From NCBI GenBank assembly GCA_003298465.1, contig QNGA01000004.1:186001-250000 (forward strand): DNA of 64,000 nt, read 5' to 3'. This document shows, one piece after another, positions 9,527 to 19,474 of this stretch. The notes under the pieces were generated by a model. The model searched no databases. It saw nothing but the letters and a program-made list of their open reading frames with translations, and was not told the origin of the DNA. A program made the translations under genes and the position numbers. The DNA comes from a halophilic archaeon. GTDB taxonomy: Archaea; Halobacteriota; Halobacteria; Halobacteriales; Haladaptataceae. Each line of letters begins with the position of its first letter. Positions within the stretch are counted from its first letter, which is position 1.

Positions 9527-10777
9527 TCAGCGGTGGAGCCGGTACGAGCCCCGAACGTCGTCCCCGTCGTGGTAGGCGACGGGTTCCTCCACGGCCGCGA
9601 ATCGACCGTCCTCGACTGCGGCCGCGGTGACGACGCCCGACGTCGGCCGCGTCGTCGTTCGGCCGTCGACGACGTCGAACCCGTGAAGCGCGTGCGCGTC
9701 CGGGTCCCGCTCCCGGAAGTGTTGCGCCGAAGGGACGGCGAGTCTGTCGCCGTCGGTCGCCACCCCGTGGACGAACCCGCCGACCGACGACTCCCAGCGA
9801 ACCTCGCCGCCCGGCCCGACGCCGACGGCCGCGTGTTCGGTCGGGTGGCGAGCGCTCGCCTCCCGTCCGTCCTCGGGATACGTGTTTCCGGTGACGAAGA
9901 CGACGCCGTCGCCGGTGGCGTGCACGTGGTTCGGATAGGCGTAGACCGTCTCCTCGCCCCGTTCGACGGGGCGACCCAGGTCGACCGCCCAGCGGACGCC
10001 CTCGCCGTCGAGGAGGTAGCCCCGATAGTCGGCGTGGCTGGCCACCGCGACGCCGTCCTCGACGAGCGAGACGTCGCCGACGCGCCGCTCCCCGTCGCCG
10101 GGCGGATTCCAGCGGCGACGCACCGCTCCGGTGTCGGCGTCGAGGACGACGAGGCCGTCGGAATCGGTCCCCGGACAGCGGTTGCAGCCGACGGCGACGT
10201 TCCCGTTTCGGACGTCGAGGGAGATCGGCGAGGCGTCGGTCTCGTAGCGCCACGCCACGGCGCCGTCGGCCGCGAACGCGTACACGACGCTCTCGAAGGT
10301 CCGGCCACCGTCCGGTCCTCGGTGGTAGCGGCGAGCGGCCGCGTACGCCCGCCGGTCGTCCGCGACCGCGTCCACGACGAACGGCAGGAAGAACCGAGTC
10401 TCTTTCGTCGGGTCACCGACGTCGTCCGCGGAGCGATAGCTCCACCACTCCGTCCCGGTGTCGGCGTCCAGCAGTCGGAGCGCACCGTCGGGGCCGCGCT
10501 CACCGACGAGGACCCCGTCCGCGAACGGGGTCAGCGAGACGACGCTTCCCGAGACGCCGTCGGATGGGGCCTCCGACGAGTCCCGGTTCGCTTCGCTCTC
10601 CGAGACGCCGTCGTTCCGCCAGCGTTCGTCGAGCGTATCGACGTCGAACGCGACGACCGACCCGTCGGCGAGGCCGGCGACGACGGCGTCGTCGCGGAGG
10701 CAGACGCTGGATCGGCGACCGAGTTGCCGGGACCCGACGGGGTCGACGCTCCCCAGGTCGACCGTTCGGTTAGTCAT
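9527..10777 (-). CDS. Cytoplasmic PQQ/YVTN-type beta-propeller protein
   Basis: The 416-residue product shows repeated blades with the D-x-D-T-G-x-x-x-W signature (FDVDTLDERW, LDADTGTEWW, LDADTGAVRRRW). There is no signal peptide or membrane segment, so it should be cytoplasmic, unlike the Tat-exported propeller at 28052-29686. It is the last gene of the cbi operon and overlaps DUF3209 by 8 bases. It also contains CNRCPG at about residue 200. A corrin-pathway role (ligand binding, scaffold or storage) is inferred only from operon position. Confidence 0.75.
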   Translation of the reverse strand: MTNRTVDLGSVDPVGSRQLGRRSSVCLRDDAVVAGLADGSVVAFDVDTLDERWRNDGVSESEANRDSSEAPSDGVSGSVVSLTPFADGVLVGERGPDGALRLLDADTGTEWWSYRSADDVGDPTKETRFFLPFVVDAVADDRRAYAAARRYHRGPDGGRTFESVVYAFAADGAVAWRYETDASPISLDVRNGNVAVGCNRCPGTDSDGLVVLDADTGAVRRRWNPPGDGERRVGDVSLVEDGVAVASHADYRGYLLDGEGVRWAVDLGRPVERGEETVYAYPNHVHATGDGVVFVTGNTYPEDGREASARHPTEHAAVGVGPGGEVRWESSVGGFVHGVATDGDRLAVPSAQHFRERDPDAHALHGFDVVDGRTTTRPTSGVVTAAAVEDGRFAAVEEPVAYHDGDDVRGSYRLHR

Positions 10778-11141
10778 CGACGGGGAACGCTTCGTGGAGG
10801 ACGTCGTGGGACGTCCCGAAGTCGTCCAGCAGCGAGTCGCCGTGGTCGGTCAACCGGGCGAGCGACCGCTCGGCGTCGCGGACCGCGACGAGACGCCCCC
10901 GGAGGTAGTCGTACTCGGGGTCGCTCTCGTCGGCGGTGGCGATTCGTTCCTCCAGGTCGACGAGGGCCGCGTCGAGGTGACGCCGGAGTTCCGACAGGCT
11001 CTCCGCGTTCGCCAGCCCCTCTATCGGACCCTCCAGGTGGCCCTCCAGTTCTTTCTCGGCGTGCTCCCGGACGCTCCGGTCGCTCGTGCCGAGGACGTTC
11101 ATCAATCCGAGTCGTAGCGCTTCGATTTCGTGACAGCTCAT
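10770..11141 (-). CDS. DUF3209 family protein
   Basis: The 123-residue product begins MSCHEIEALRLGLMNVLG, the recognisable start of the haloarchaeal DUF3209 family, and is mostly alpha-helical with a His/Cys pair at residues 3-4. It lies 2 bases after the cbiX stop and overlaps the downstream propeller by 8 bases, inside the cobalamin operon. The function is not known. The CH pair near the N terminus could bind a metal; this is inference. Confidence 0.75.
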   Translation of the reverse strand: MSCHEIEALRLGLMNVLGTSDRSVREHAEKELEGHLEGPIEGLANAESLSELRRHLDAALVDLEERIATADESDPEYDYLRGRLVAVRDAERSLARLTDHGDSLLDDFGTSHDVLHEAFPVDD

Positions 11142-11143
11142 GG

Positions 11144-12409
11144 TTACAGCGTTTGGTCGACGATGTCCGAAACGATTCGATCCCGGTCGAGGTGGGACGA
11201 GACGATACGCTCTGCGTCGTTTTCGTCGACGCCGCCGTACCAGACGCCGTCCGGGTAGACGGCGACCATCGGCCCGTCGCCGCACCGTCCGAGACACGAC
11301 GAGCGCGTGACGCGCGCGTCGCACTCCTCGGAGTCCCGAACCGACTGGCGCAGGCGTTCGAGGAGGGCCGGCGCGCCGTCCGCCGCGCACGTCTGGTTCG
11401 TGCAGACGGCGACGTGCTTCTCCGGCGCGTCGTGGGCGTGCGGGTCGTCGTCCACGGAGTCGCGGTCGGCGTGTGACTCCTGGTGAGTCAGCGCCCGCAG
11501 CATGGCCCGCGCACCGCCGACGTCCTCCTCGTACCCGTCGAGTTCGACCTTGTACTTGCAGGTGTCACACGACATGCGGACGCTGTCGGTTCGCGCCTCC
11601 TGCCATCTGTCGCCGAGCACGTCCAGGAGCCGCGAGTCCGTCCCGAGGGGGTCTCCGGCCGCGGCGTCCACGTACGGGTACTCCTCGTCGAACTCCGCGG
11701 TCCGGTCGCGGATGCGTCGGGTGAGCACGCCGTCGCCCAGCATGTACGGGAGCACGACGACGGCGTCCGGGCGATGCTTCGCCACGTCGTGGAGCGCGTC
11801 CCGCAAGCGGGGTTCCGTGACCCCGACGAAACAGGATTCCGTGCGGTCGAACGCGCGGCCCTCGTACAGGAGCCGAGCCAGCTTGTGCACGTCGCCGTTG
11901 GCGTCCGGGTCGCTCGACCCGCGCGCACAGAGGACGACCGCGACGTCGTCCGCCTCGCGGTCGACGCCCAGTTCCGACTCCACCGCGGCGGCGCGGTCGT
12001 CCAGCAGGTCGACGATTGCGGGGTGGACGCCGAGGTGGGACCCGCTGTGGAGCGTCAGGTCCGAACGCTCCGACCGCGCCCGCTGGACGGCCAGCGGGAC
12101 GTCGTTTTTGACGTGGCCCGCGGCGAACAGCGACAGCGGCACCACGGTTATCTCGGACACCGCGGGCGCGAGGCTGCCGATGGCCTGCGGTATCGTCGGT
12201 GGCGCGAGTTCGAGAAACCCCACGTCGACCGGGACGCCCAGTCGCTCCTCCAGGCCGGCGGCGAGTTCGCGGACCTGCTCGTTCGACTTCTCCCGGCGCG
12301 AACCGTGACCGACGAGCAACACCGCCTCGTCGTCGAACGCACCGCCCACGTCCACCGAACGGGCCGCCTCGTCGCGGCCGGACTCGTCGCCGTCGGTACT
12401 CCGACTCAT
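11144..12409 (-). CDS. cbiX: Sirohydrochlorin cobaltochelatase CbiX with C-terminal [2Fe-2S] domain
   Basis: The 421-residue product has two chelatase half-domains and a C-terminal thioredoxin-like [2Fe-2S] domain. The first half keeps the metal-site His residues in VGHGSRR (H35) and AAGHVKND (H99). The second half has CARGSSD and YMLGDGVL at the matching places, so it has lost both His and is probably structural. The last 100 or so residues carry VCTNQTC and CLGRC. It inserts cobalt into sirohydrochlorin at the start of the early-insertion route. The ATG at 12409 overlaps the upstream gene by 4 bases (ATGA); a longer reading into that gene was rejected. Confidence 0.9.
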   Translation of the reverse strand: MSRSTDGDESGRDEAARSVDVGGAFDDEAVLLVGHGSRREKSNEQVRELAAGLEERLGVPVDVGFLELAPPTIPQAIGSLAPAVSEITVVPLSLFAAGHVKNDVPLAVQRARSERSDLTLHSGSHLGVHPAIVDLLDDRAAAVESELGVDREADDVAVVLCARGSSDPDANGDVHKLARLLYEGRAFDRTESCFVGVTEPRLRDALHDVAKHRPDAVVVLPYMLGDGVLTRRIRDRTAEFDEEYPYVDAAAGDPLGTDSRLLDVLGDRWQEARTDSVRMSCDTCKYKVELDGYEEDVGGARAMLRALTHQESHADRDSVDDDPHAHDAPEKHVAVCTNQTCAADGAPALLERLRQSVRDSEECDARVTRSSCLGRCGDGPMVAVYPDGVWYGGVDENDAERIVSSHLDRDRIVSDIVDQTL

Positions 12410-13110
12410 CGCTCTCCGGCGCGTTCGAGATTCCTCAGCAACTTCCGCCTTCGCGCCGGGGCGAACAGTCCGCTCTCCTCGCAGTTCTCGTACAGCCACG
12501 GGCCGACCGTCGGGACGGCCTCGTCGCTCACGCCGAACCAGTGGCTACCCGAGGACGTCTCCTCGATGCCGCCCGTTGGTGCGTCCGGTGGAACGCTCGC
12601 GAGGAGTTCCTGGACGCGTTCGAGGAGGTGTCTGTCCTCGTGGACGAACGAGACGCCGACGGAGCCGCCGGTCGAACGGTCCGCGGAGACGTCGGCCGTC
12701 CCGGAGGAGCCCTTGAAACAGACCGTGCCGCACCCCTCGAGTAGCCCGCGGAGGAGCTGGCGCTCGTACCCGTCGAAGGCGTCCAGGCGGTACCCACCGG
12801 GGTCGCCGTTCAACGGAAGCCCGAACGCCGCGGCCGCCCGGTTCGCCACGTCCCCGAAGAGCTGTATCGCGTACTCGTCCTCCGTGCGGGTGATAGCCGT
12901 GTCGTGGGCGTACTCGCGCTCGACGATTCGGTGGTCGACCCGTTCGTCGCCCGCGATGGCCGCGAGTCGGCGGGCGGCCGTCTCGTCGTTCGCGCGGACC
13001 GTCAGACAGCCCTCGTCCAGGTCGCCGTCGCCGACGGCTCGCCCCCAGAAGTACGCCGTCTCCGGGTGGCTCGCGAGCAAGTCCGCGGGGGTGCCGGTCT
13101 CCATCGACAT
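12406..13110 (-). CDS. LAGLIDADG-like protein of the cobalamin operon
   Basis: This 234-residue protein is not one of the known corrin enzymes. It contains two LAGLIDADG-type helices: FWGRAVGDGD at 21-30, then CLTVRANDETAARRLA; and LRGLLEGCG at 120-128, then a strand and SFVHEDRHLLERVQELL. The C-terminal LYENCEESGLF...RRRKLL also fits that fold. The first motif keeps its acidic residue (D28); in the second the catalytic position is Cys127. It therefore looks like a domesticated homing-endonuclease fold, perhaps a DNA-binding regulator. It overlaps cbiX by 4 bases and the ferredoxin by 1. Confidence 0.7.
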   Translation of the reverse strand: MSMETGTPADLLASHPETAYFWGRAVGDGDLDEGCLTVRANDETAARRLAAIAGDERVDHRIVEREYAHDTAITRTEDEYAIQLFGDVANRAAAAFGLPLNGDPGGYRLDAFDGYERQLLRGLLEGCGTVCFKGSSGTADVSADRSTGGSVGVSFVHEDRHLLERVQELLASVPPDAPTGGIEETSSGSHWFGVSDEAVPTVGPWLYENCEESGLFAPARRRKLLRNLERAGER

Positions 13111-13379
13111 CAGTACTCCTCCACGGTGATCGCGCCCGGCGGACAGGCGGCGGCCGCCTGTCGCGCCTCGTCGGCGCGGTCGTCTTCGAACTCGGCGACT
13201 ATCCGCCCGTCCTCCTCGCGGACGCGACCCTCGTCGCTCCCGTTCGGCGGGACCGGGTCCGCCGCCGGGTCGACCGTGGCCAGTCCGTCCTCGCCCTCGA
13301 CGAAGCGCGGGTCGCGCGTGAGGCAGGCGAAGATGCCCTCGCAGGCGTCCTTGTCGACGATTACTCGGTAGCCTGTCAT
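13110..13379 (-). CDS. Ferredoxin with three-Cys cluster motif
   Basis: The 89-residue product reads YRVIVDKDACEGIFACLTRDP at the start and AACPPGAITVEEY at the end. The C-x5-C pair (C13, C19) and the distant CP (C79) fit the single-cluster ferredoxins that carry a [3Fe-4S] or [4Fe-4S] centre, with no second Cx2C. It sits between cbiH (3 bases after this gene's upstream neighbour) and the LAGLIDADG-like gene. In the anaerobic route electrons are needed for cobalt reduction and for ring contraction chemistry at CbiH, so an electron-donor role is a reasonable inference. Confidence 0.82.
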   Translation of the reverse strand: MTGYRVIVDKDACEGIFACLTRDPRFVEGEDGLATVDPAADPVPPNGSDEGRVREEDGRIVAEFEDDRADEARQAAAACPPGAITVEEY

Positions 13380-13382
13380 GGT

Positions 13383-14324
13383 TCAGTAGTCGTACTTGCT
13401 CTCGTAGCCGCGCGGCGTGACCATCCGGTCGTCCCAGACGTACGTGTCCTCGTTGCCGACGAGAACCGTGGTCGTCATGTCCACGAGGTCGGTCTCGCCG
13501 AGTTCTTCGAGGTCGCCGAGTTCGACGATTTCGACCCGCTCGTCCTCGCGGCCGGCGCCGTGGACGATGCCGACCGGCGTCTCGGGGTCGCGATGCTCCA
13601 GCAGAATCTCACAGCATTTCTCGTAGTTGTCCCTGCGCTTGCGACTCCACGGGTTGTAGATGGCGATGGTGAACCCCTCCTTGGCGGCGGCGTGGAGGCG
13701 CGACTCGATGGTCGGCATCGGCGTCAGGTGGTCCGACAGGGAGATGCTGACCGTGTCGTTCACGAGCGGTGCGCCGACCCGCGCCGCGCAGGACTGGGCC
13801 GCGGGCACGCCCGGAACGACCTCGAAGTCGAGCGCGCTGGCGGTCGCGCCCTTCGACTCCACGATTTCGAGCGCGAGGCCGCCGAGCGCGTACACGTTCG
13901 GGTCGCCGCTCCCGACGATGGCGACGTGGTTCCCCGCGAGCGCGCGGTCGACGGCCTCCTCGGTTCGGGAGACCTCGCCGCACATCGGGGTGTCGTACAG
14001 TTCGTCGGCGGCGTCGGTGACTTCGTCGGGCAGGAGGTCGATGTACGTCGTGTAGCCGACGATGTGTTCGGCCTCGTGCAGCGCCGCGCGGGCGCGTCGG
14101 GTCATCCCGTCCGCGTGGCCGGGACCCAACCCGACCGCGACGAGACTACCGGGGTCGGCGTCGAAGTCGTCGACGGTCGCGCCGACCTTCCCTTCGGTCG
14201 ACGCGTCCGCCGACCCGCCGCAGTCCGAACTCGACGACGAACCGCTCGACCCGCCGCAGTTCGACTCGCTCGTCTCCGTCTTCGATGCTCCGCACTTGGA
14301 TTCGGTGGTGTCGTCCGTGCTCAT
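13383..14324 (-). CDS. cbiH: Cobalt-factor III C17-methyltransferase CbiH
   Basis: The 313-residue product has a tetrapyrrole methylase domain (LVAVGLGPGHADGMTRRA at about 60, GSGDPNVYALGG at about 137, VPGVPAAQS, and IYNPWSRKR) typical of CbiH/CobJ, which methylates C17 and contracts the ring. Its N terminus is an unusual 45-residue Ser/Gly/Thr stretch with Cys-Gly at residues 11, 23 and 35, exactly 12 residues apart. The following ferredoxin gene starts 3 bases after the stop. The second, similar gene at 14327-15187 ends 2 bases before this one starts. Confidence 0.9.
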   Translation of the reverse strand: MSTDDTTESKCGASKTETSESNCGGSSGSSSSSDCGGSADASTEGKVGATVDDFDADPGSLVAVGLGPGHADGMTRRARAALHEAEHIVGYTTYIDLLPDEVTDAADELYDTPMCGEVSRTEEAVDRALAGNHVAIVGSGDPNVYALGGLALEIVESKGATASALDFEVVPGVPAAQSCAARVGAPLVNDTVSISLSDHLTPMPTIESRLHAAAKEGFTIAIYNPWSRKRRDNYEKCCEILLEHRDPETPVGIVHGAGREDERVEIVELGDLEELGETDLVDMTTTVLVGNEDTYVWDDRMVTPRGYESKYDY

Positions 14325-14326
14325 CG

Positions 14327-15187
14327 TTAGAAGTCGTCGACGTCACGCCCGCCGCGCGGGGTGACGAGATGCTTTCCGCGTTCGTTCTCCCAGACGTTCG
14401 TCTCGTGATTGCCGACGAGGATGGAGGTGCCCATCCCGCCGACCTCGTCGTCGTGGTCGTCGGCCGCTCGCAGCGTCGTGATGGTGTGGGTCTCGCCCTC
14501 CTGATTGCGACCGGTATCGCCGCGGCTGGCGTCGTTGAAGATGGCGACCGGGACGTCGTCGGCGCGCTCTTCGCGGACGACGTCTATCGCGCGCTGGTAG
14601 TCCCGCCAGCAGTTGTAGAGGACGATGACGAAGCCGCTGATCGCGGCCGCGCGCAACTTCTCTTCGATCTCGTCCCAGCCGCGCCACTTGTCCGACAGCG
14701 ATATCGTACAGAAGTCGTTCGACAGCGGCGCGCCGAGGTTCGCCGCGCCGCCGAGCGCCGCGGTCACGCCAGGCACGACCTCGATGGGAACGTCGTACGC
14801 CTCGTCTTCCTCCGCCATGAGGAACAGGAGGTCGCTCTTCCCGTACACGTTCGGATCGCCGCCCGAGACGTGGGCGACGTCCTCCCCGTCGCGGACGCGT
14901 TCGAAGGCCTCGCGGGCGAGCTCGGTCTGTCGGCCCATCGTCGACCGGACGACGTCCTGTTCCGGCCGACCGCCGGCCGAGGCGGTGGCCGTTCCGCCGT
15001 CCGTCGCGGTCTCCGGCGGAAGCGTCCCGTCGCGCCGGAGGAACTCCTGGTAGAGGTTCGAGGCGATGACGCAGTCGGCGTTGGCGATGACGTCCTTCGC
15101 CCGCTGGGTCATCGCGTGGGGGAGCCCCGGACCGATACCGACGACGTAGAGGGTACCGGTGTCGCCCCTGGTCTGGTCGTCGCTCAT
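14327..15187 (-). CDS. Second CbiH/CobJ-type precorrin methyltransferase
   Basis: The 286-residue product is a paralogue of the neighbouring CbiH. It shows YVVGIGPGLPHAMTQRA, SGGDPNVYGKSD, VPGVTAALGG and VLYNCWRDY, and both proteins end with TPRG plus a short tail. It lacks the Cys-Gly leader and has a Gly/Thr/Ala insert near residue 65. Two CbiH-like genes side by side suggest that one does C17 methylation with ring contraction while the other has a different or helper activity. Which is which cannot be told from sequence. It is tightly packed in the operon (1 base from cbiG). Confidence 0.85.
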   Translation of the reverse strand: MSDDQTRGDTGTLYVVGIGPGLPHAMTQRAKDVIANADCVIASNLYQEFLRRDGTLPPETATDGGTATASAGGRPEQDVVRSTMGRQTELAREAFERVRDGEDVAHVSGGDPNVYGKSDLLFLMAEEDEAYDVPIEVVPGVTAALGGAANLGAPLSNDFCTISLSDKWRGWDEIEEKLRAAAISGFVIVLYNCWRDYQRAIDVVREERADDVPVAIFNDASRGDTGRNQEGETHTITTLRAADDHDDEVGGMGTSILVGNHETNVWENERGKHLVTPRGGRDVDDF

Positions 15188-15188
15188 C

Positions 15189-16169
15189 TTATCGCCCCAC
15201 CGCGACCGTCACCGCGTCCTCGAACCGCTCTTTCTCCCGCGCCAGTTCGTGTTCGCGCCCGCCAGCGATGGCCGACGCCTCCGCGATGCCCGGCCACCCG
15301 ATGAGTTCCTTCGAACGCGACGGGGAGGGTCCCTCGAACCCCTCCAGGGTCTCCTTCTCGAAGAGGACCACGCCGACATCGGCCTCCCGTGCGGCCTCGT
15401 AGATGCCCTCCTCGCCCTCCTTCCTGGTGCCGGTGGCGACGAAGTCCACGTCCTCGAAGCCGAGTCCGAGGTCGTCCAGTGCAGCGTCCCACGCGTCGAG
15501 TACCCGCTCCGACTCCACGCCCGAGACGGTGCCCGTCCCGAGTACCACGCCGTCGTCCCCGTTCCGCTTGAGAACGGTCACGTCGTCGTCGACGAGCACC
15601 GCCCGCGGCCCGTCGAGTCGAGTGACGGGACCGAGTTCGTCGTTCAGGACGGCGAGGTTGGTCGCGACCGTCGAGTCGCCGTTGACGACGTGGGCGTCCA
15701 GCGCCTTCGCCTTGCTCTCGACTCCCTGCTCGCCCGCGGCTTCGCTCGCCGTGGTCATCGCCGGGACCGCACCCATCTCAGAGAGGTCGTGGGCGACCTG
15801 GTTGGCCCCGTGGTGGCCGCCGGTGATGGGGATGGCCCACGTGAGTTCCTCGTCGACGACGACGATGGCGGGGTCGTCCCACTTGTCGTCGAGCAAGGGT
15901 GCCGTCTTCCGCATCGCGATGCCCGACGCCATCAGTCCGACGAAGCAGTCGTACTCGCCCCAGTGCTCCGCGAACACGTCGCCGTGATACTCGATGATGT
16001 CCACGCGGTCGTACTCGTCGCCGATACCGTCCGCGATATCGCGAGCGGTGTCGAGCTTGCGCTCGAAGCTGACGATAGCTATCTCCTCGGCCACCTCTCC
16101 GTCCGAGTCCGGCGTGGAGCAGTGGCCTCCCGATTCGTCCGATTCCGCGTCGTTCGTTTCCGTACTCAT
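15189..16169 (-). CDS. cbiG: Cobalt-precorrin-5A hydrolase CbiG
   Basis: The 326-residue product shows the CbiG N-terminal domain (YDCFVGLMASGIAMRKTAPLLDDKWDDPAIVVVDE at about 70-105, with PITGGHHGANQVA after it) and the C-terminal domain with VATGTRKEGEEGI and a Glu/Lys-rich end. CbiG opens the delta-lactone ring and releases acetaldehyde, a step specific to the anaerobic (early-cobalt) route. The short leader contains one GHC near residue 16. Spacing to neighbours is 1-2 bases, so translation is probably coupled along the operon. Confidence 0.92.
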   Translation of the reverse strand: MSTETNDAESDESGGHCSTPDSDGEVAEEIAIVSFERKLDTARDIADGIGDEYDRVDIIEYHGDVFAEHWGEYDCFVGLMASGIAMRKTAPLLDDKWDDPAIVVVDEELTWAIPITGGHHGANQVAHDLSEMGAVPAMTTASEAAGEQGVESKAKALDAHVVNGDSTVATNLAVLNDELGPVTRLDGPRAVLVDDDVTVLKRNGDDGVVLGTGTVSGVESERVLDAWDAALDDLGLGFEDVDFVATGTRKEGEEGIYEAAREADVGVVLFEKETLEGFEGPSPSRSKELIGWPGIAEASAIAGGREHELAREKERFEDAVTVAVGR

Positions 16170-16171
16170 GG

Positions 16172-17038
16172 TCAGTCGTCCGCCTCGCTTTCGTTCGAAC
16201 TCCCGTTCGCCCAGTCGCCGTACAGGTAGGAGCGCTCGTACTCCGTCCCCTGCGCCGCGTCGCCGATGATAACGAGCGCGGAGGCCCGATAACCGGCCGC
16301 CTCAACCTGATCACCGATGGTGGCGATGGTCCCCTCGATGACGTCCTCGTCGGGCCAGGACGCGTGGTAGACCGCGGTGGCCGGCGTGTCCGGGTCGTGT
16401 CCCGCGGCCAGCAACCGGTCCATCGTCTCCCCGACCGCGTGCGTCCCGAGGTAGATACAGGTCGTCACGTCGCCCATCTCGACGAACTCGCCGATGTGGT
16501 CCTCGTCGGGGTCGAGGGTCTTGCCCTGGGGCCGGGTGAAGGCGACGTGGTTCGCCACGCCGTTCAGGGTGAGTTGCGTTCGAAGCGTGGCGCTCGCCGC
16601 GAACGCCGCGGTCACGCCCGGTACGAGGTAGGTCGGAACGCCCTCGTGTTCCAGCGCGTCCATCTGCTCCAGCGCCGCACCGTACACCGCCGGGTCACCG
16701 CTGTGGAGGCGAACGACGTCGCGCCCCTCCTCGTGGGCGTCCCGCATCAGCGGAATCAGTTCCTCCAGGTCCTTGCCGACGCTCGACACCTGCTCGGCGT
16801 TCGCGCAGTACTCATCGAGGAGTTCGCTGTTCACGAGCGACCCCGCGTGAACGACGAGGTCCGCCGCTTCGACCAGCTCGCGGCCCGTGACCGTCAGCAG
16901 GCCCGGGTCTCCGGGGCCTGCACCGATGAACGGAATCCCCTCCCGAACCTCGCCGGCGGTTCGGTCGGCGATTCGGGCGTCGCGCCGTCGGGTCCGGGCG
17001 TCCGCCTCCGCCTCGATGGCGTCCTGCGGGTCAGTCAT
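16172..17038 (-). CDS. cbiF: Cobalt-precorrin-4 C11-methyltransferase CbiF
   Basis: The 288-residue product fits CbiF/CobM: PFIGAGPGDPGLLTVTG at about 37, VVHAGSLVN, RLHSGDPAVYGA at about 110 and VPGVTAAFAASA, in the order of the tetrapyrrole methylase fold. It adds the C11 methyl to the ring using SAM. An Arg/Asp-rich leader (about 30 residues) precedes the domain. Its start overlaps the cbiL stop by 8 bases. Confidence 0.92.
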   Translation of the reverse strand: MTDPQDAIEAEADARTRRRDARIADRTAGEVREGIPFIGAGPGDPGLLTVTGRELVEAADLVVHAGSLVNSELLDEYCANAEQVSSVGKDLEELIPLMRDAHEEGRDVVRLHSGDPAVYGAALEQMDALEHEGVPTYLVPGVTAAFAASATLRTQLTLNGVANHVAFTRPQGKTLDPDEDHIGEFVEMGDVTTCIYLGTHAVGETMDRLLAAGHDPDTPATAVYHASWPDEDVIEGTIATIGDQVEAAGYRASALVIIGDAAQGTEYERSYLYGDWANGSSNESEADD

Positions 17039-17795
17039 CCGACGCCACCTCCGGGGGTTCGTCGCCGTGAGCCTCGCCTTCGGCGCGTTCCTGCATCGCC
17101 ACGTCGTCCGTCGTTTCGAACCTCGCAGTGGCCGGTTCGTGCTCGACGTCGCGCTTCTCCGCGTAGGCCAGCGTGTAGTAGTCCCGCTGGGCGACTGCCT
17201 CCGGGTCCTCGGTCACGACGGTCTCGCCCTGTTCCATGAACAGCCGGCGACCGTACAGCACGTCGTACCCGGCTTCGACGAGCTTCTCGTGCGTCGTCGG
17301 AGCGTCCGTGACCTTGAACAGGATCATCCGGTCCGGACCGGTCGGGGCCGCACCCCGGGCGGCCTCGTGGAGCGCGAGGCTCGTCCCCGACGAAATCTCG
17401 ACGCCGAGGGCGGTCGCGAACGCGGTGACCGCGCTGACGCCGGGGACGATTTCGACCTCGACGTCCGGATGGAACGCGGACATCGTGCGTCGAAGGTGGC
17501 CGAACGTCGAGTAGACGTTCGGGTCGCCCAGCGTGACGAACGCCACGGTTTCGTCACGCGCTCGCGGTGCGATTTCGTCGGCGGCTTCCCTCCAGGCCCG
17601 TCGAAGCTCGTCCTCGTCGCGCGTCATGGGGAAGTCGACGTCGCCGATGCGGTCTTCCGGCACGTGGTCGGTGGCGACCGACCGGGAGAGTCGCCCCGGC
17701 GAGTAAACGACGTCGGCCTCTTCGAGGACGCGTCGGCCCCTGACGGTGACGAGGTCGGCGTCGCCCGGACCGAGGCCGACTCCGTACAGGCTCAT
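17031..17795 (-). CDS. cbiL: Cobalt-factor II C20-methyltransferase CbiL
   Basis: The 254-residue product begins LYGVGLGPGDADLVTVRG and continues with VAFVTLGDPNVYSTFGHL and VPGVSAVTAFA, the CbiL/CobI version of the tetrapyrrole methylase motifs (the TLGDP and YST residues are typical). It methylates C20, the position later lost on ring contraction. The ATG at 17795 overlaps the cbiT stop (ATGA). The open frame continues upstream only as an Arg-rich shadow of cbiT, so the short start was chosen. The acidic tail is about 30 residues. Confidence 0.92.
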   Translation of the reverse strand: MSLYGVGLGPGDADLVTVRGRRVLEEADVVYSPGRLSRSVATDHVPEDRIGDVDFPMTRDEDELRRAWREAADEIAPRARDETVAFVTLGDPNVYSTFGHLRRTMSAFHPDVEVEIVPGVSAVTAFATALGVEISSGTSLALHEAARGAAPTGPDRMILFKVTDAPTTHEKLVEAGYDVLYGRRLFMEQGETVVTEDPEAVAQRDYYTLAYAEKRDVEHEPATARFETTDDVAMQERAEGEAHGDEPPEVASDD

Positions 17796-18514
17796 CGTCG
17801 TCTCCCGTCGGAACCGCGCTCCGACGACGTTCGTGGTTCGCTCGACTCCTCCCTCCCGTCGGAGCGGAACCCCGACGACGTTCGCGGTCCGTCGGACCGC
17901 TCGCTCCCGTCGGCGTCTCGCTCCGCGGACGTCCGCTTCACGTCGGTCGGCTCGCCGCCGTCCGCGGCAACTTCGTTCGGGCTCCCGACCAGCATGTACA
18001 CCGGGTTGTCCGAGTCGAAGCTGGTCGCACCGGCCAACTGGTAGCCGTGGCTCACCTGGAACTGGACGACTTCGTCGAGGAGGTCCCGCTCGCGGAACGC
18101 TTCGGTCGCCGCACCGGCGACTTCGAGCCTGGAGACGTTCATCACGACGCGGTCGATACCGGTATCGACTGCGTGGTCGAGCACCGACTCGTAGTTCCTG
18201 CTCCCGCCGATGAACAGCGCGTCGGCGTCCTCCGGCAGTCCGTCCGGAGCCTCCGCCTCCCGGAGCGTGACGTCCGCGGTGACGTCGTTCGCCGCCAGGT
18301 TCTTCCGACTGACCGCCAGCCGTTCCGGTTTCCGTTCGATCGCAGTGACCCGCCCGGCGCGGCGCGCAGCCTCGATAGTGACCGCGCCCGTGCAGGGACC
18401 GACCTCGGCGAAGTGGTCGGTCGGAGCCAGGTCGAGTTTGTCGCGAAGGACGGCCCGAACCTCGGGTTTGGTCGGGCCCGCCTTCGCGTCGTGAGGAAGT
18501 GCTGTACGTGCCAT
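17792..18514 (-). CDS. cbiT: Cobalt-precorrin-6B C15-methyltransferase (decarboxylating) CbiT
   Basis: The 240-residue product has a class I methyltransferase core: KPEVRAVLRDKL, then FAEVGPCTGAVTIEAAR (SAM-binding loop, about residues 35-50), TAIERKPERL and LFIGGSRN. It methylates C15 and decarboxylates C12 side chain chemistry together with CbiE. It leads the 11-gene operon. The ATG at 18514 was preferred to a TTG four codons upstream. The last 50 residues are a low-complexity Ser/Arg/Asp tail made by a 51-bp tandem repeat, absent from the usual family length of about 190 residues. Confidence 0.9.
   Translation of the reverse strand: MARTALPHDAKAGPTKPEVRAVLRDKLDLAPTDHFAEVGPCTGAVTIEAARRAGRVTAIERKPERLAVSRKNLAANDVTADVTLREAEAPDGLPEDADALFIGGSRNYESVLDHAVDTGIDRVVMNVSRLEVAGAATEAFRERDLLDEVVQFQVSHGYQLAGATSFDSDNPVYMLVGSPNEVAADGGEPTDVKRTSAERDADGSERSDGPRTSSGFRSDGREESSEPRTSSERGSDGRRR
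17796..17942. repeat. 51-bp tandem repeat encoding the CbiT tail
   Basis: CTCCCGTCGG recurs at 17802, 17853 and 17904, exactly 51 bases apart, and the sequence between is similar (for example CCGACGACGTTCG in the first two units). Read on the minus strand it gives 17-residue units with RTSS and SDG in fixed positions. About 2.7 units are present. Confidence 0.7.
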
Positions 18515-18673
18515 CACCGGACACAACTTCCGTGGGGCCTAAAACAATTTTGGTTGATTTACTCCAACCTAGGTTTTCTTACGGCGGTCGTTTCGGCTCC
18601 GAAGACAAGCTCACCGACACTAAAGCAAAGATACTTGAGTTATCGGCGCTCACAGTCGCCAACGGCAAAAGAA
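18515..18673. promoter_or_regulatory. Divergent promoter between cbiT operon and winged-helix regulator
   Basis: On the minus strand GTTTTAGG (18538-18545) lies 24-31 bases before the cbiT ATG, a good leaderless TATA position. AACCTAGGTTG (minus strand, 18575-18565) lies about 20 bases further up and contains the perfect palindrome AACCTAGGTT (18566-18575). GGTTG (18552-18556) and CAACC (18565-18569) also form an inverted repeat. The regulator gene on the other side has no strong TATA; GAGTTATCG near 18640 is the best candidate. Confidence 0.5.
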
Positions 18674-19474
18674 ATGGATACGTCCGACGATGCAGGCGTT
18701 CTGCGGAGCAAGCGGAACGCCACGAGGTACCAGATCCTGGTTCAAATTGCGGAACGGCAGCCGGCGGTGAGTCAACAGGAAATCGCGGACGTGATCGGAA
18801 TCACTTCGCAGGCCGTGAGCGACTATCTCCGGGACCTAATCGAGCACGGGTGCGTTCGGAAGCACGGCCGCGGACGCTACGAGATCACCAAGGAAGGCGT
18901 GGACTGGCTCATCTCCCAGACCGACGAACTCCGCGATTTCGTCCGGCACGTTTCAGAGGACGTCATCGGCCAGGTCGAGATCGAAACCGCGCTCGCGACG
19001 ACGGCGATCGACGAAGGACAGAGGGTGTCGCTCTCGATGCGGGACGGCGTTCTCCGAGCGACGCCAGGGGAAACCGCGAACGCAACTGCAGTTGCAGTTA
19101 CGGACGCGGAGACGGGACGGGACGTCGGCGTCACCGATTTCGAAGGCGTCCTCGATTACGAGGTGGGGAGAGTGACCGTGATCTCGGTTCCGCGGGTTCA
19201 GGACGGAGGAAGTACGGTGGTGGACTGTGCGACGGTGTCCGACTGCGCCGAAACGCACGACCTGCTCGTGACGTCCGGCACCGAAGCGCTGGCGGTGGTC
19301 GAGTCGACGGACCGCGAGCCGGACGTTCGCTTCGGAACTCCCCTCGCGGTACAGGAAGCCGCCACGAAGGGGCTGGACGTGCTGTTGCTCGCGGTCGCGA
19401 ACGAGCTTTCGACGCACACGGACGAACTCCGGGAACGGAACATCAGCTACGAGGTCGTCGACGCGGCCGAGTAG
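18674..19474 (+). CDS. Winged-helix (MarR-like) transcriptional regulator divergent from the cbi operon
   Basis: The 266-residue product has an N-terminal helix-turn-helix (RYQILVQIAERQPAVSQQEIADVIGITSQAVSDYLRDLIEHGCV, about 18-62) with a wing (GRGRYEITKEGVDWL), then a 190-residue haloarchaeal sensor or dimer domain of unknown ligand. A close paralogue is at 31910-32692. The ATG at 18674 was chosen as the first that starts the HTH domain. The divergent position beside the cbi operon and the palindrome between them make it a candidate regulator of cobalamin genes; that is inference. Confidence 0.8.
   Translation: MDTSDDAGVLRSKRNATRYQILVQIAERQPAVSQQEIADVIGITSQAVSDYLRDLIEHGCVRKHGRGRYEITKEGVDWLISQTDELRDFVRHVSEDVIGQVEIETALATTAIDEGQRVSLSMRDGVLRATPGETANATAVAVTDAETGRDVGVTDFEGVLDYEVGRVTVISVPRVQDGGSTVVDCATVSDCAETHDLLVTSGTEALAVVESTDREPDVRFGTPLAVQEAATKGLDVLLLAVANELSTHTDELRERNISYEVVDAAE

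What the first reader, a model, noticed from the sequence alone, without database searches (positions are those of the whole stretch)
12406..13110. LAGLIDADG-like protein built into the cbi operon
Two LAGLIDADG-type helices (FWGRAVGDGD at 21-30, LRGLLEGCG at 120-128) and a LYE...RRRKLL end are visible. The gene is not within an intron or intein but overlaps both neighbours, as a normal operon member does. The second catalytic acid is Cys127 while the first (D28) is kept. It could be a domesticated homing-endonuclease fold acting as a DNA-binding regulator (compare the WhiA family) or as an unrecognised corrin-pathway protein.
Basis: partly seen in the sequence, partly recalled or inferred. Interest (0 to 1): 0.75.

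Follow-up and report, generated by a model that had tools for sequence, protein, structure and literature searches.

The report
Nuclease-fold protein in vitamin B12 operon
Salt-loving archaea carry, inside their vitamin B12 operon, a protein predicted to be shaped like a DNA-cutting enzyme but with cysteines at its cutting site, so it probably no longer cuts DNA and may instead help handle cobalt or redox chemistry, or control the operon.

The parts
12406..13110 (-). LAGLIDADG-fold protein (234 aa, Pfam PF26411 family); probable orthologue of HVO_B0055 by synteny (inference)
13110..13379 (-). small ferredoxin (Pfam Fer4_15, 89 aa), overlaps the gene by one base; a relative is fused to it in P0094 and P0123
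11144..12409 (-). cbiX cobaltochelatase with MSCDTC motif and C-terminal 2Fe-2S thioredoxin-like domain; overlaps the gene by four bases
10770..11141 (-). DUF3209 protein (start at the MSCHEIEAL methionine inferred from the ORF; the piece scanned was 10770-11117)
9527..10777 (-). PQQ-type beta-propeller protein, end of the cluster
13383..14324 (-). cbiH2 (precorrin-3B C17-methyltransferase type, over NCBIfam cut-off) with N-terminal Cys-rich extension
14327..15187 (-). cbiH1 (second CbiH-type methyltransferase; best NCBIfam match below cut-off)
15189..16169 (-). cbiG (cobalt-precorrin 5A hydrolase, over NCBIfam cut-off)
16172..17038 (-). cbiF (precorrin-4 C11-methyltransferase type; best NCBIfam match slightly below cut-off)
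17031..17765 (-). cbiL (cobalt-factor II C20-methyltransferase, over NCBIfam cut-off); piece scanned, the true start may lie a little upstream
17792..18514 (-). cbiT, first gene of the cluster (ATG start taken from the conserved spacing to the element)
18540..18558 (-). conserved operator-like element CAACCAAAATTGTTTTA, its ATTGTTTT starting 34 bp before the cbiT ATG

Best explanation
A homing-endonuclease fold of the monomeric LAGLIDADG type was domesticated in haloarchaea and became a fixed member of the cobalt-early B12 operon. It has lost the paired acids that bind the catalytic metal. The centre of the saddle, where the nuclease site would be, is among the most conserved parts: Cys127 replaces the second catalytic acid, Cys131 follows on what should be the same strand face, and Glu125 and His69 are invariant. 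I infer that this centre binds a metal (cobalt first, or an iron-sulphur species) or works as a redox thiol pair, and that the protein works with the ferredoxin and CbiX to supply, hold or redox-condition cobalt or the cobalt-sirohydrochlorin intermediate, probably as part of a module that lets these archaea run the 'anaerobic' cobalt-early route in air. SHOWN by calls: predicted fold, conservation, operon position, co-occurrence, fusions, exceptions. INFERRED: metal or thiol function, geometry of the centre, partner contacts, aerobic role.
For: Fold. Invariant in 63 sequences, including the forms P0122 (34% identical to the window protein) and L095 (40%): A19 W22 A46 H69 R121 G122 E125 C127 G128 C131 S154 Y207 P218 R220 K223. 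The outer domain-1 hairpin, which in nucleases contacts distal DNA (recalled), is variable and on average acidic (positions 30-37). Order Fdx-gene-cbiX in 80 of 80 loci; four-base overlap of the ferredoxin and gene in 62 of 80, with starts chosen by a nearest-start rule. Present in 146 of 151 CbiG-positive and 0 of 141 CbiG-negative genomes of a class sample. Two ferredoxin-gene fusions. Absences: in L088, L089, L091 and L092 no gene, ferredoxin, DUF3209 or beta-propeller was found in the 20-kb stretch (nothing better than E 0.1), and their CbiX ends in a tail with 12-40 His and no 2Fe-2S domain; L090 lost only the gene and carries a His-tailed CbiX copy in its place. PMC7689651 (passages): a His-rich CbiX region was proposed for metal storage and delivery. 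A Halorutilales-type copy lies between two cation-efflux genes. COX1 is missing in 3 of the 5 gene-negative CbiG genomes and in 0 of 146 gene-positive ones (Fisher 1.8e-5, not corrected for kinship).
Against: No coordinates were available, so it is not tested whether H69, E125, C127 and C131 meet in space. L023 has both the gene and a His-tailed CbiX. G270 has COX1 but lacks the gene and its neighbours. The four module-free loci lie on one side of a split with support 0.93 in a midpoint-rooted tree, so the correlations rest on few independent events, and the whole module covaries, not this gene alone. The same review says that deleting the His-rich region did not affect cobalt insertion. G006 and G012 have a bd oxidase, so absence of COX1 is not proof of strict anaerobiosis. 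The gene in genome G026 lies apart from cbiX and the cbi cluster. Conserved Arg/Lys (R65, R75, K133, R220-K223) would also suit nucleic-acid binding, and as haloarchaeal proteins are acidic overall (net charge -17 here), an acidic hairpin is weak evidence against DNA binding.
Confidence: 0.42

Rival explanations
1. DNA-binding transcription regulator of the cob/cbi genes (WhiA-like use of the fold), perhaps sensing cobalt, corrinoid or redox state through the Cys site or the partner ferredoxin.
For: WhiA is among the structural matches, and WhiA acts with the Fe-S protein WhiB at a promoter (titles of 8dy7/8dy9; PMC4850268 in a search listing), a parallel to gene plus ferredoxin. In Halobacterium salinarum cob/cbi genes respond to TrmB and, by modelling, to an unidentified second TrmB-dependent activator (PMC3794607, passages and Discussion). 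A very conserved element lies before cbiT: ATTGTTTT in 73 of 75. G056, which lost the gene, is the only one of 14 genomes without a match to the wider pattern. The WhiA LAGLIDADG domain seems to add to DNA affinity (PMC3781837).
Against: No HTH domain; in WhiA the HTH binds DNA and the LAGLIDADG domain alone did not footprint (PMC3781837, passages). The element is present in the gene-free genomes G006, G012, G132 and G270. The outer saddle hairpin is variable and acidic. A conventional HTH gene (MarR-type HTH plus DUF7839) lies divergently beside cbiT in the window, and its relative does so in 19 of 74 loci with a CbiT hit. The paper's own candidates for the second activator are other genes, or metabolite feedback.
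Confidence: 0.27
2. An enzyme of the corrin ring pathway that fills one of the two haloarchaeal gaps (C1 methylation, CbiD, EC 2.1.1.195, or precorrin-6A-type reduction, CbiJ, EC 1.3.1.106), possibly with the ferredoxin as electron donor.
For: CbiD 0 of 292 and CbiJ 0 of 292 over cut-off in the class sample (one CbiJ match below it). PMC8305020 (section 3.3) names HVO_B0052, B0053, B0055 and B0056 as candidates for the gaps; B0055 matches this gene by synteny (inference).
Against: Four genomes with cbiT-L-F-G-H1-H2-X and no CbiD/CbiJ also lack this gene, though they could use another solution. The fold is not one known for either enzyme (recalled). No Pfam match to a SAM-, NAD(P)H- or flavin-binding domain at E <= 1.
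Confidence: 0.13
3. An RNA-binding or purely structural scaffold protein derived from a LAGLIDADG maturase-like ancestor.
For: A LAGLIDADG maturase (2ab5) is among the structural matches.
Against: The gene overlaps both neighbours, leaving no room for an intron at its ends; the invariant Cys and His are not explained. RNA binding was not tested.
Confidence: 0.1
4. An active homing endonuclease or a recent selfish insertion.
For: Fold only.
Against: Catalytic position 8 is variable in motif 1 and Cys in motif 2; stable synteny and co-occurrence with the pathway across a class.
Confidence: 0.02

Closest known systems
Monomeric LAGLIDADG homing endonucleases (I-Tsp061I 2dch, I-DmoI, PI-PfuI)
   Different: Not in an intron or intein, lacks the paired catalytic acids, has invariant Cys127/Cys131, fixed in an operon
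WhiA / DUF199 (domesticated LAGLIDADG fold)
   Different: No HTH domain, archaeal, in a cofactor operon, Cys centre
HVO_B0055 and the unassigned genes of the Haloferax cobalamin cluster (PMC8305020)
   Same: Same position between cbiX1 (B0054) and cbiH2 (B0057); the paper already calls these genes conserved in synteny, unassigned, and candidates for the pathway gaps
   Different: The parts read (section 3.3 and passages; not the supplement) give no fold, residues or phylogenetic profile for it
His-rich tail of CbiX-L (Bacillus megaterium)
   Same: A proposed cobalt store/delivery element of the early cobaltochelatase (PMC7689651 passages); a His-tailed CbiX occurs in all five gene-negative CbiG genomes
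   Different: A tail on the chelatase itself, not a separate folded protein; its deletion did not affect insertion

Membership tests
LAGLIDADG fold superfamily | alpha-beta-beta-alpha-beta-beta-alpha repeats with LAGLIDADG helices | tested here: met
   two models, Foldseek and VIA matches; 20 of 63 members hit PF14528 at E <= 0.01
LAGLIDADG homing endonuclease | acidic residue at position 8 of both motifs | tested here: not met
   D28 in 34 of 63; position 127 Cys in 63 of 63
LAGLIDADG homing endonuclease | carried by an intron, intein or mobile ORF | tested here: not met
   overlapping operon gene, same order in 80 of 80 loci
LAGLIDADG homing endonuclease | site-specific DNA cleavage | not testable with these tools
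   needs a biochemical assay
WhiA | C-terminal HTH domain | tested here: not met
   the chain ends after the second repeat and its C-terminal helix; no WhiA or HTH Pfam match at E <= 1 for the window protein, nor at E <= 0.01 among 63 members
WhiA | promoter binding | not testable with these tools
   needs ChIP or gel shift
CbiD / CbiJ | Pfam PF01888 / PF02571 similarity | tested here: not met
   no such match at E <= 1
Pfam PF26411 | family label | tested here: met
   precomputed label on P0001 (100% identical, full length) and on all 120 homologues listed of 533; the model did not appear in the local Pfam scan
Metalloprotein with Cys/His site | bound metal | not testable with these tools
   only invariance of H69, E125, C127, C131 was shown

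The most novel reading that the evidence does not exclude
The first LAGLIDADG-fold protein that does not act on nucleic acid: the nuclease metal centre was rebuilt from acids into a Cys/His soft-metal or thiol site, and the protein, paired with a ferredoxin, conditions cobalt for CbiX so that haloarchaea can run the oxygen-sensitive cobalt-early B12 pathway in air.
Probability: 0.28. Interest if true: 0.88.

Novelty: new variant of a known kind. Interest (0 to 1): 0.64.

Why it matters
To my knowledge (recalled, not searched exhaustively) it would be a second case, after WhiA, of a LAGLIDADG fold fixed as a cellular gene in prokaryotes, and possibly the first outside nucleic-acid biology. It also gives a handle on an open question: haloarchaea use the 'anaerobic' cobalt-early B12 route although Halobacterium was reported to make B12 aerobically (PMC3403918 passage). 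The phylogenetic profile points to a testable module that tracks COX1 with one clear exception (G270) besides the single-gene loss in G056.

Tried and rejected
Sequence search of solved structures with the protein and with the 63-row profile found no credible relative; the link to LAGLIDADG rests on predicted structure and on weak Pfam matches. CbiD and CbiJ families were sought in 292 genomes: 0 and 0 over cut-off. A phylum sample gave 24 of 294 matches, all in genomes already in the class sample, so no wider family was found; in these surveys at most 10 first-look candidates a genome were scored with the profile. Six apparently split copies were inspected (G019, G121, G135, G176, G186, G272): five read in one frame, G186 shows a frame change. 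The Rfam scan of the window was empty, so no known B12 riboswitch was found. The idea that the gene alone reads the cbiT element was weakened because gene-free genomes keep the element. A first tail classifier was wrong and was replaced. An active selfish nuclease was rejected. A published LAGLIDADG link was sought: 0 held papers contain both 'LAGLIDADG' and 'cobalamin biosynthesis', and of the terms HVO_B0055, HVO_B0056, HVO_B0053 and PF26411 only PMC8305020 holds any; a search on domesticated LAGLIDADG metal-binding proteins listed nothing on this case (12 of 16 listed). Subscription papers are not covered, and supplements could not be read. Papers: PMC8305020 passages and section 3.3; PMC3403918, PMC7689651 and PMC3781837 passages only; PMC3794607 passages and Discussion; others as search listings only.

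Full report
CHECK OF THE OBSERVATION. The gene at 12406-13110 (-) is as described. It sits in a haloarchaeal cluster in the order cbiT, cbiL, cbiF, cbiG, cbiH1, cbiH2, ferredoxin, this gene, cbiX, DUF3209, beta-propeller (cbiH1 and cbiF fall below the curated NCBIfam cut-off, cbiT, cbiL, cbiG and cbiH2 exceed one). It shares one base with the ferredoxin stop and four with the cbiX start. In 62 of 80 fetched loci the ferredoxin and the gene overlap by four bases, with starts chosen by a nearest-start rule.

CONSERVATION. In 63 sequences the invariant positions are A19, W22, A46, H69, R121, G122, E125, C127, G128, C131, S154, Y207, P218, R220 and K223. Position 28, the first catalytic acid, is Asp in 34, Ser in 19, Asn in 7, Gly in 2 and Ala in 1. 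The loci were fetched with DNA patterns that include C127 and C131 or HPETAYFW, so their invariance is partly selected; the 35 homologues in alignment A1 were not chosen that way and keep H69, E125, C127 and C131 in 35 of 35, as do the divergent copies found by profile. The alternation V130/F132 versus C127/T129/C131/K133 on the first strand of repeat two suggests that both cysteines face the saddle; this is inference from the pattern and from recalled I-CreI geometry, not a measured distance. The domain-1 outer hairpin is variable and acidic on average, but so is the whole protein (net -17).

CONTEXT. In 80 of 80 loci the gene lies between the ferredoxin and cbiX; cbiH2 and cbiH1 are found in 79 each, cbiG in 78, DUF3209 in 76, the propeller in 71 (several loci end at contig ends). 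In 292 genomes drawn from the class, the gene occurs in 146, all of which have CbiG; CbiG occurs in 151. CbiD was found in 0 of 292 and CbiJ in 0 of 292 over cut-off, with one CbiJ match below it. PMC8305020 (section 3.3) lists four unassigned genes of this cluster as candidates for those gaps; by synteny this gene is HVO_B0055.

EXCEPTIONS. The five CbiG-positive genomes without the gene are G006, G012, G056, G132 and G270. In four of them (L088, L089, L091, L092) the ferredoxin, DUF3209 and propeller are also missing from the 20-kb stretch (no match better than E 0.1; the rest of those genomes was not searched for them), and CbiX has a His-rich tail in place of the 2Fe-2S domain. CbiH2 has no N-terminal cysteines in L088, L089 and L092, nor in L091 (read by eye), while 76 of 76 other loci that the script could read, L090 included, have one to five; L094 of genome G026 has two. 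The fifth, G056 (L090), keeps the rest but has a second, His-tailed CbiX exactly where this gene should be. Among 82 gene-positive cases (80 loci plus L095 and the cbiX locus L105 of G026), CbiX has the 2Fe-2S tail in 78 (75 by the strict rule, plus L035, L063 and L068), a His tail in one (L023), and is unreadable in three (L018, L074, L076). In G026, whose copy is 85% identical to P0122, the gene is away from the cbi cluster and flanked by a cation-efflux gene on one side and a rhodanese and a second cation-efflux gene on the other. A CbiG+CbiF tree of 45 tips (44 of the 78 loci with both proteins, plus the window) separates the four module-free loci from the rest with support 0.93 at a midpoint root, and places L090 and L023 inside the rest, so there are few independent events.

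OXYGEN. COX1 is present in 288 of 292 genomes. It is missing only in G006, G012, G096 and G132; three of these are gene-negative CbiG genomes and G096 has no CbiG. G270 and G056 have COX1 and no gene. Of 12 genomes tested, bd oxidase is found in 11, G006 and G012 included, and not in G132. Fisher p is 1.8e-5 on 151 genomes without correction for kinship. This is a suggestive association of the module with oxygen-respiring life, not proof.

FUSIONS. P0094 (318 aa) and P0123 (295 aa) join an N-terminal Fer4_15 ferredoxin to the gene through a short linker; these are the 2 fusions among the 120 rows listed of 638. Their longest contigs are 1106 and 2377 bases.

REGULATION. Upstream of cbiT an element CAAnCAnAATTGTTTTA lies about 34 bp before the ATG. 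ATTGTTTT is exact in 73 of 75 upstream regions, window included, and the other two (L002, L090) hold near variants. In 14 genomes the wider pattern occurs once or twice in 13, with no control matches; extra copies precede cbiM in G006, G012 and G026 (Pfam CbiM confirmed for G012 and G026; G006 by likeness) and a cbiH1-like ORF in G005; one in G132 was not assigned. Gene-free genomes G006, G012, G132 and G270 have it; G056 does not match. So some factor other than this gene must read it in those genomes, or it is a core promoter element.

MECHANISM AND NOVELTY. The best-supported reading is a domesticated LAGLIDADG fold with a Cys/His centre working with ferredoxin and CbiX; confidence 0.42 for the mechanism, much higher for the fold and for operon membership. 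The regulator reading stays open at 0.27. It is a new variant of a known kind (domesticated LAGLIDADG folds). No held paper contains both LAGLIDADG and cobalamin biosynthesis.

Noticed in passing
window 18540-18558 (-); cbiT upstream regions of the fetched loci: Very conserved operator-like element CAAnCAnAATTGTTTTA about 34 bp before cbiT, in many loci flanked by an ATACAAC/GTTGTAT inverted repeat (seen by eye); 73 of 75 exact for ATTGTTTT; extra copies before cbiM and a cbiH1-like ORF in some genomes.
   Followed up: partly
window 13383-14324 (-), N-terminus of cbiH2: Cys-rich low-complexity extension with repeated CGAS/CGGS units (1-5 Cys) in 76 of 76 loci readable by the script outside the module-free clade; no Cys in L088, L089, L092 and, by eye, L091.
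   Followed up: partly
window 18674-19474 (+): MarR-type HTH regulator with DUF7839, weak (sub-threshold) likeness to ArsR/SmtB metalloregulators, divergent from cbiT; a relative is in the same place in 19 of 74 loci with a CbiT hit.
   Followed up: partly
L090:12402-13343: Second, His-tailed CbiX exactly at the slot of the lost gene in genome G056.
   Followed up: yes
L093:8544-11553: Divergent copy of the family (genome G026, 85% identical to a Halorutilales protein) flanked by two cation diffusion facilitator genes and a rhodanese, away from its cbi cluster.
   Followed up: partly
class sample G001-G292: CbiD and CbiJ absent in the sample (0 of 292 over cut-off each), so the C1-methylation and reductase gaps look class-wide.
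   Followed up: partly
L011:7819, L015:7604, L019:7682, L022:7571, L025:7634, L030:7636, L031:7636: A second copy of the element inside the cbi cluster (the only copy held in L030 and L031); in G005, the genome of L011, it precedes a cbiH1-like ORF.
   Followed up: no
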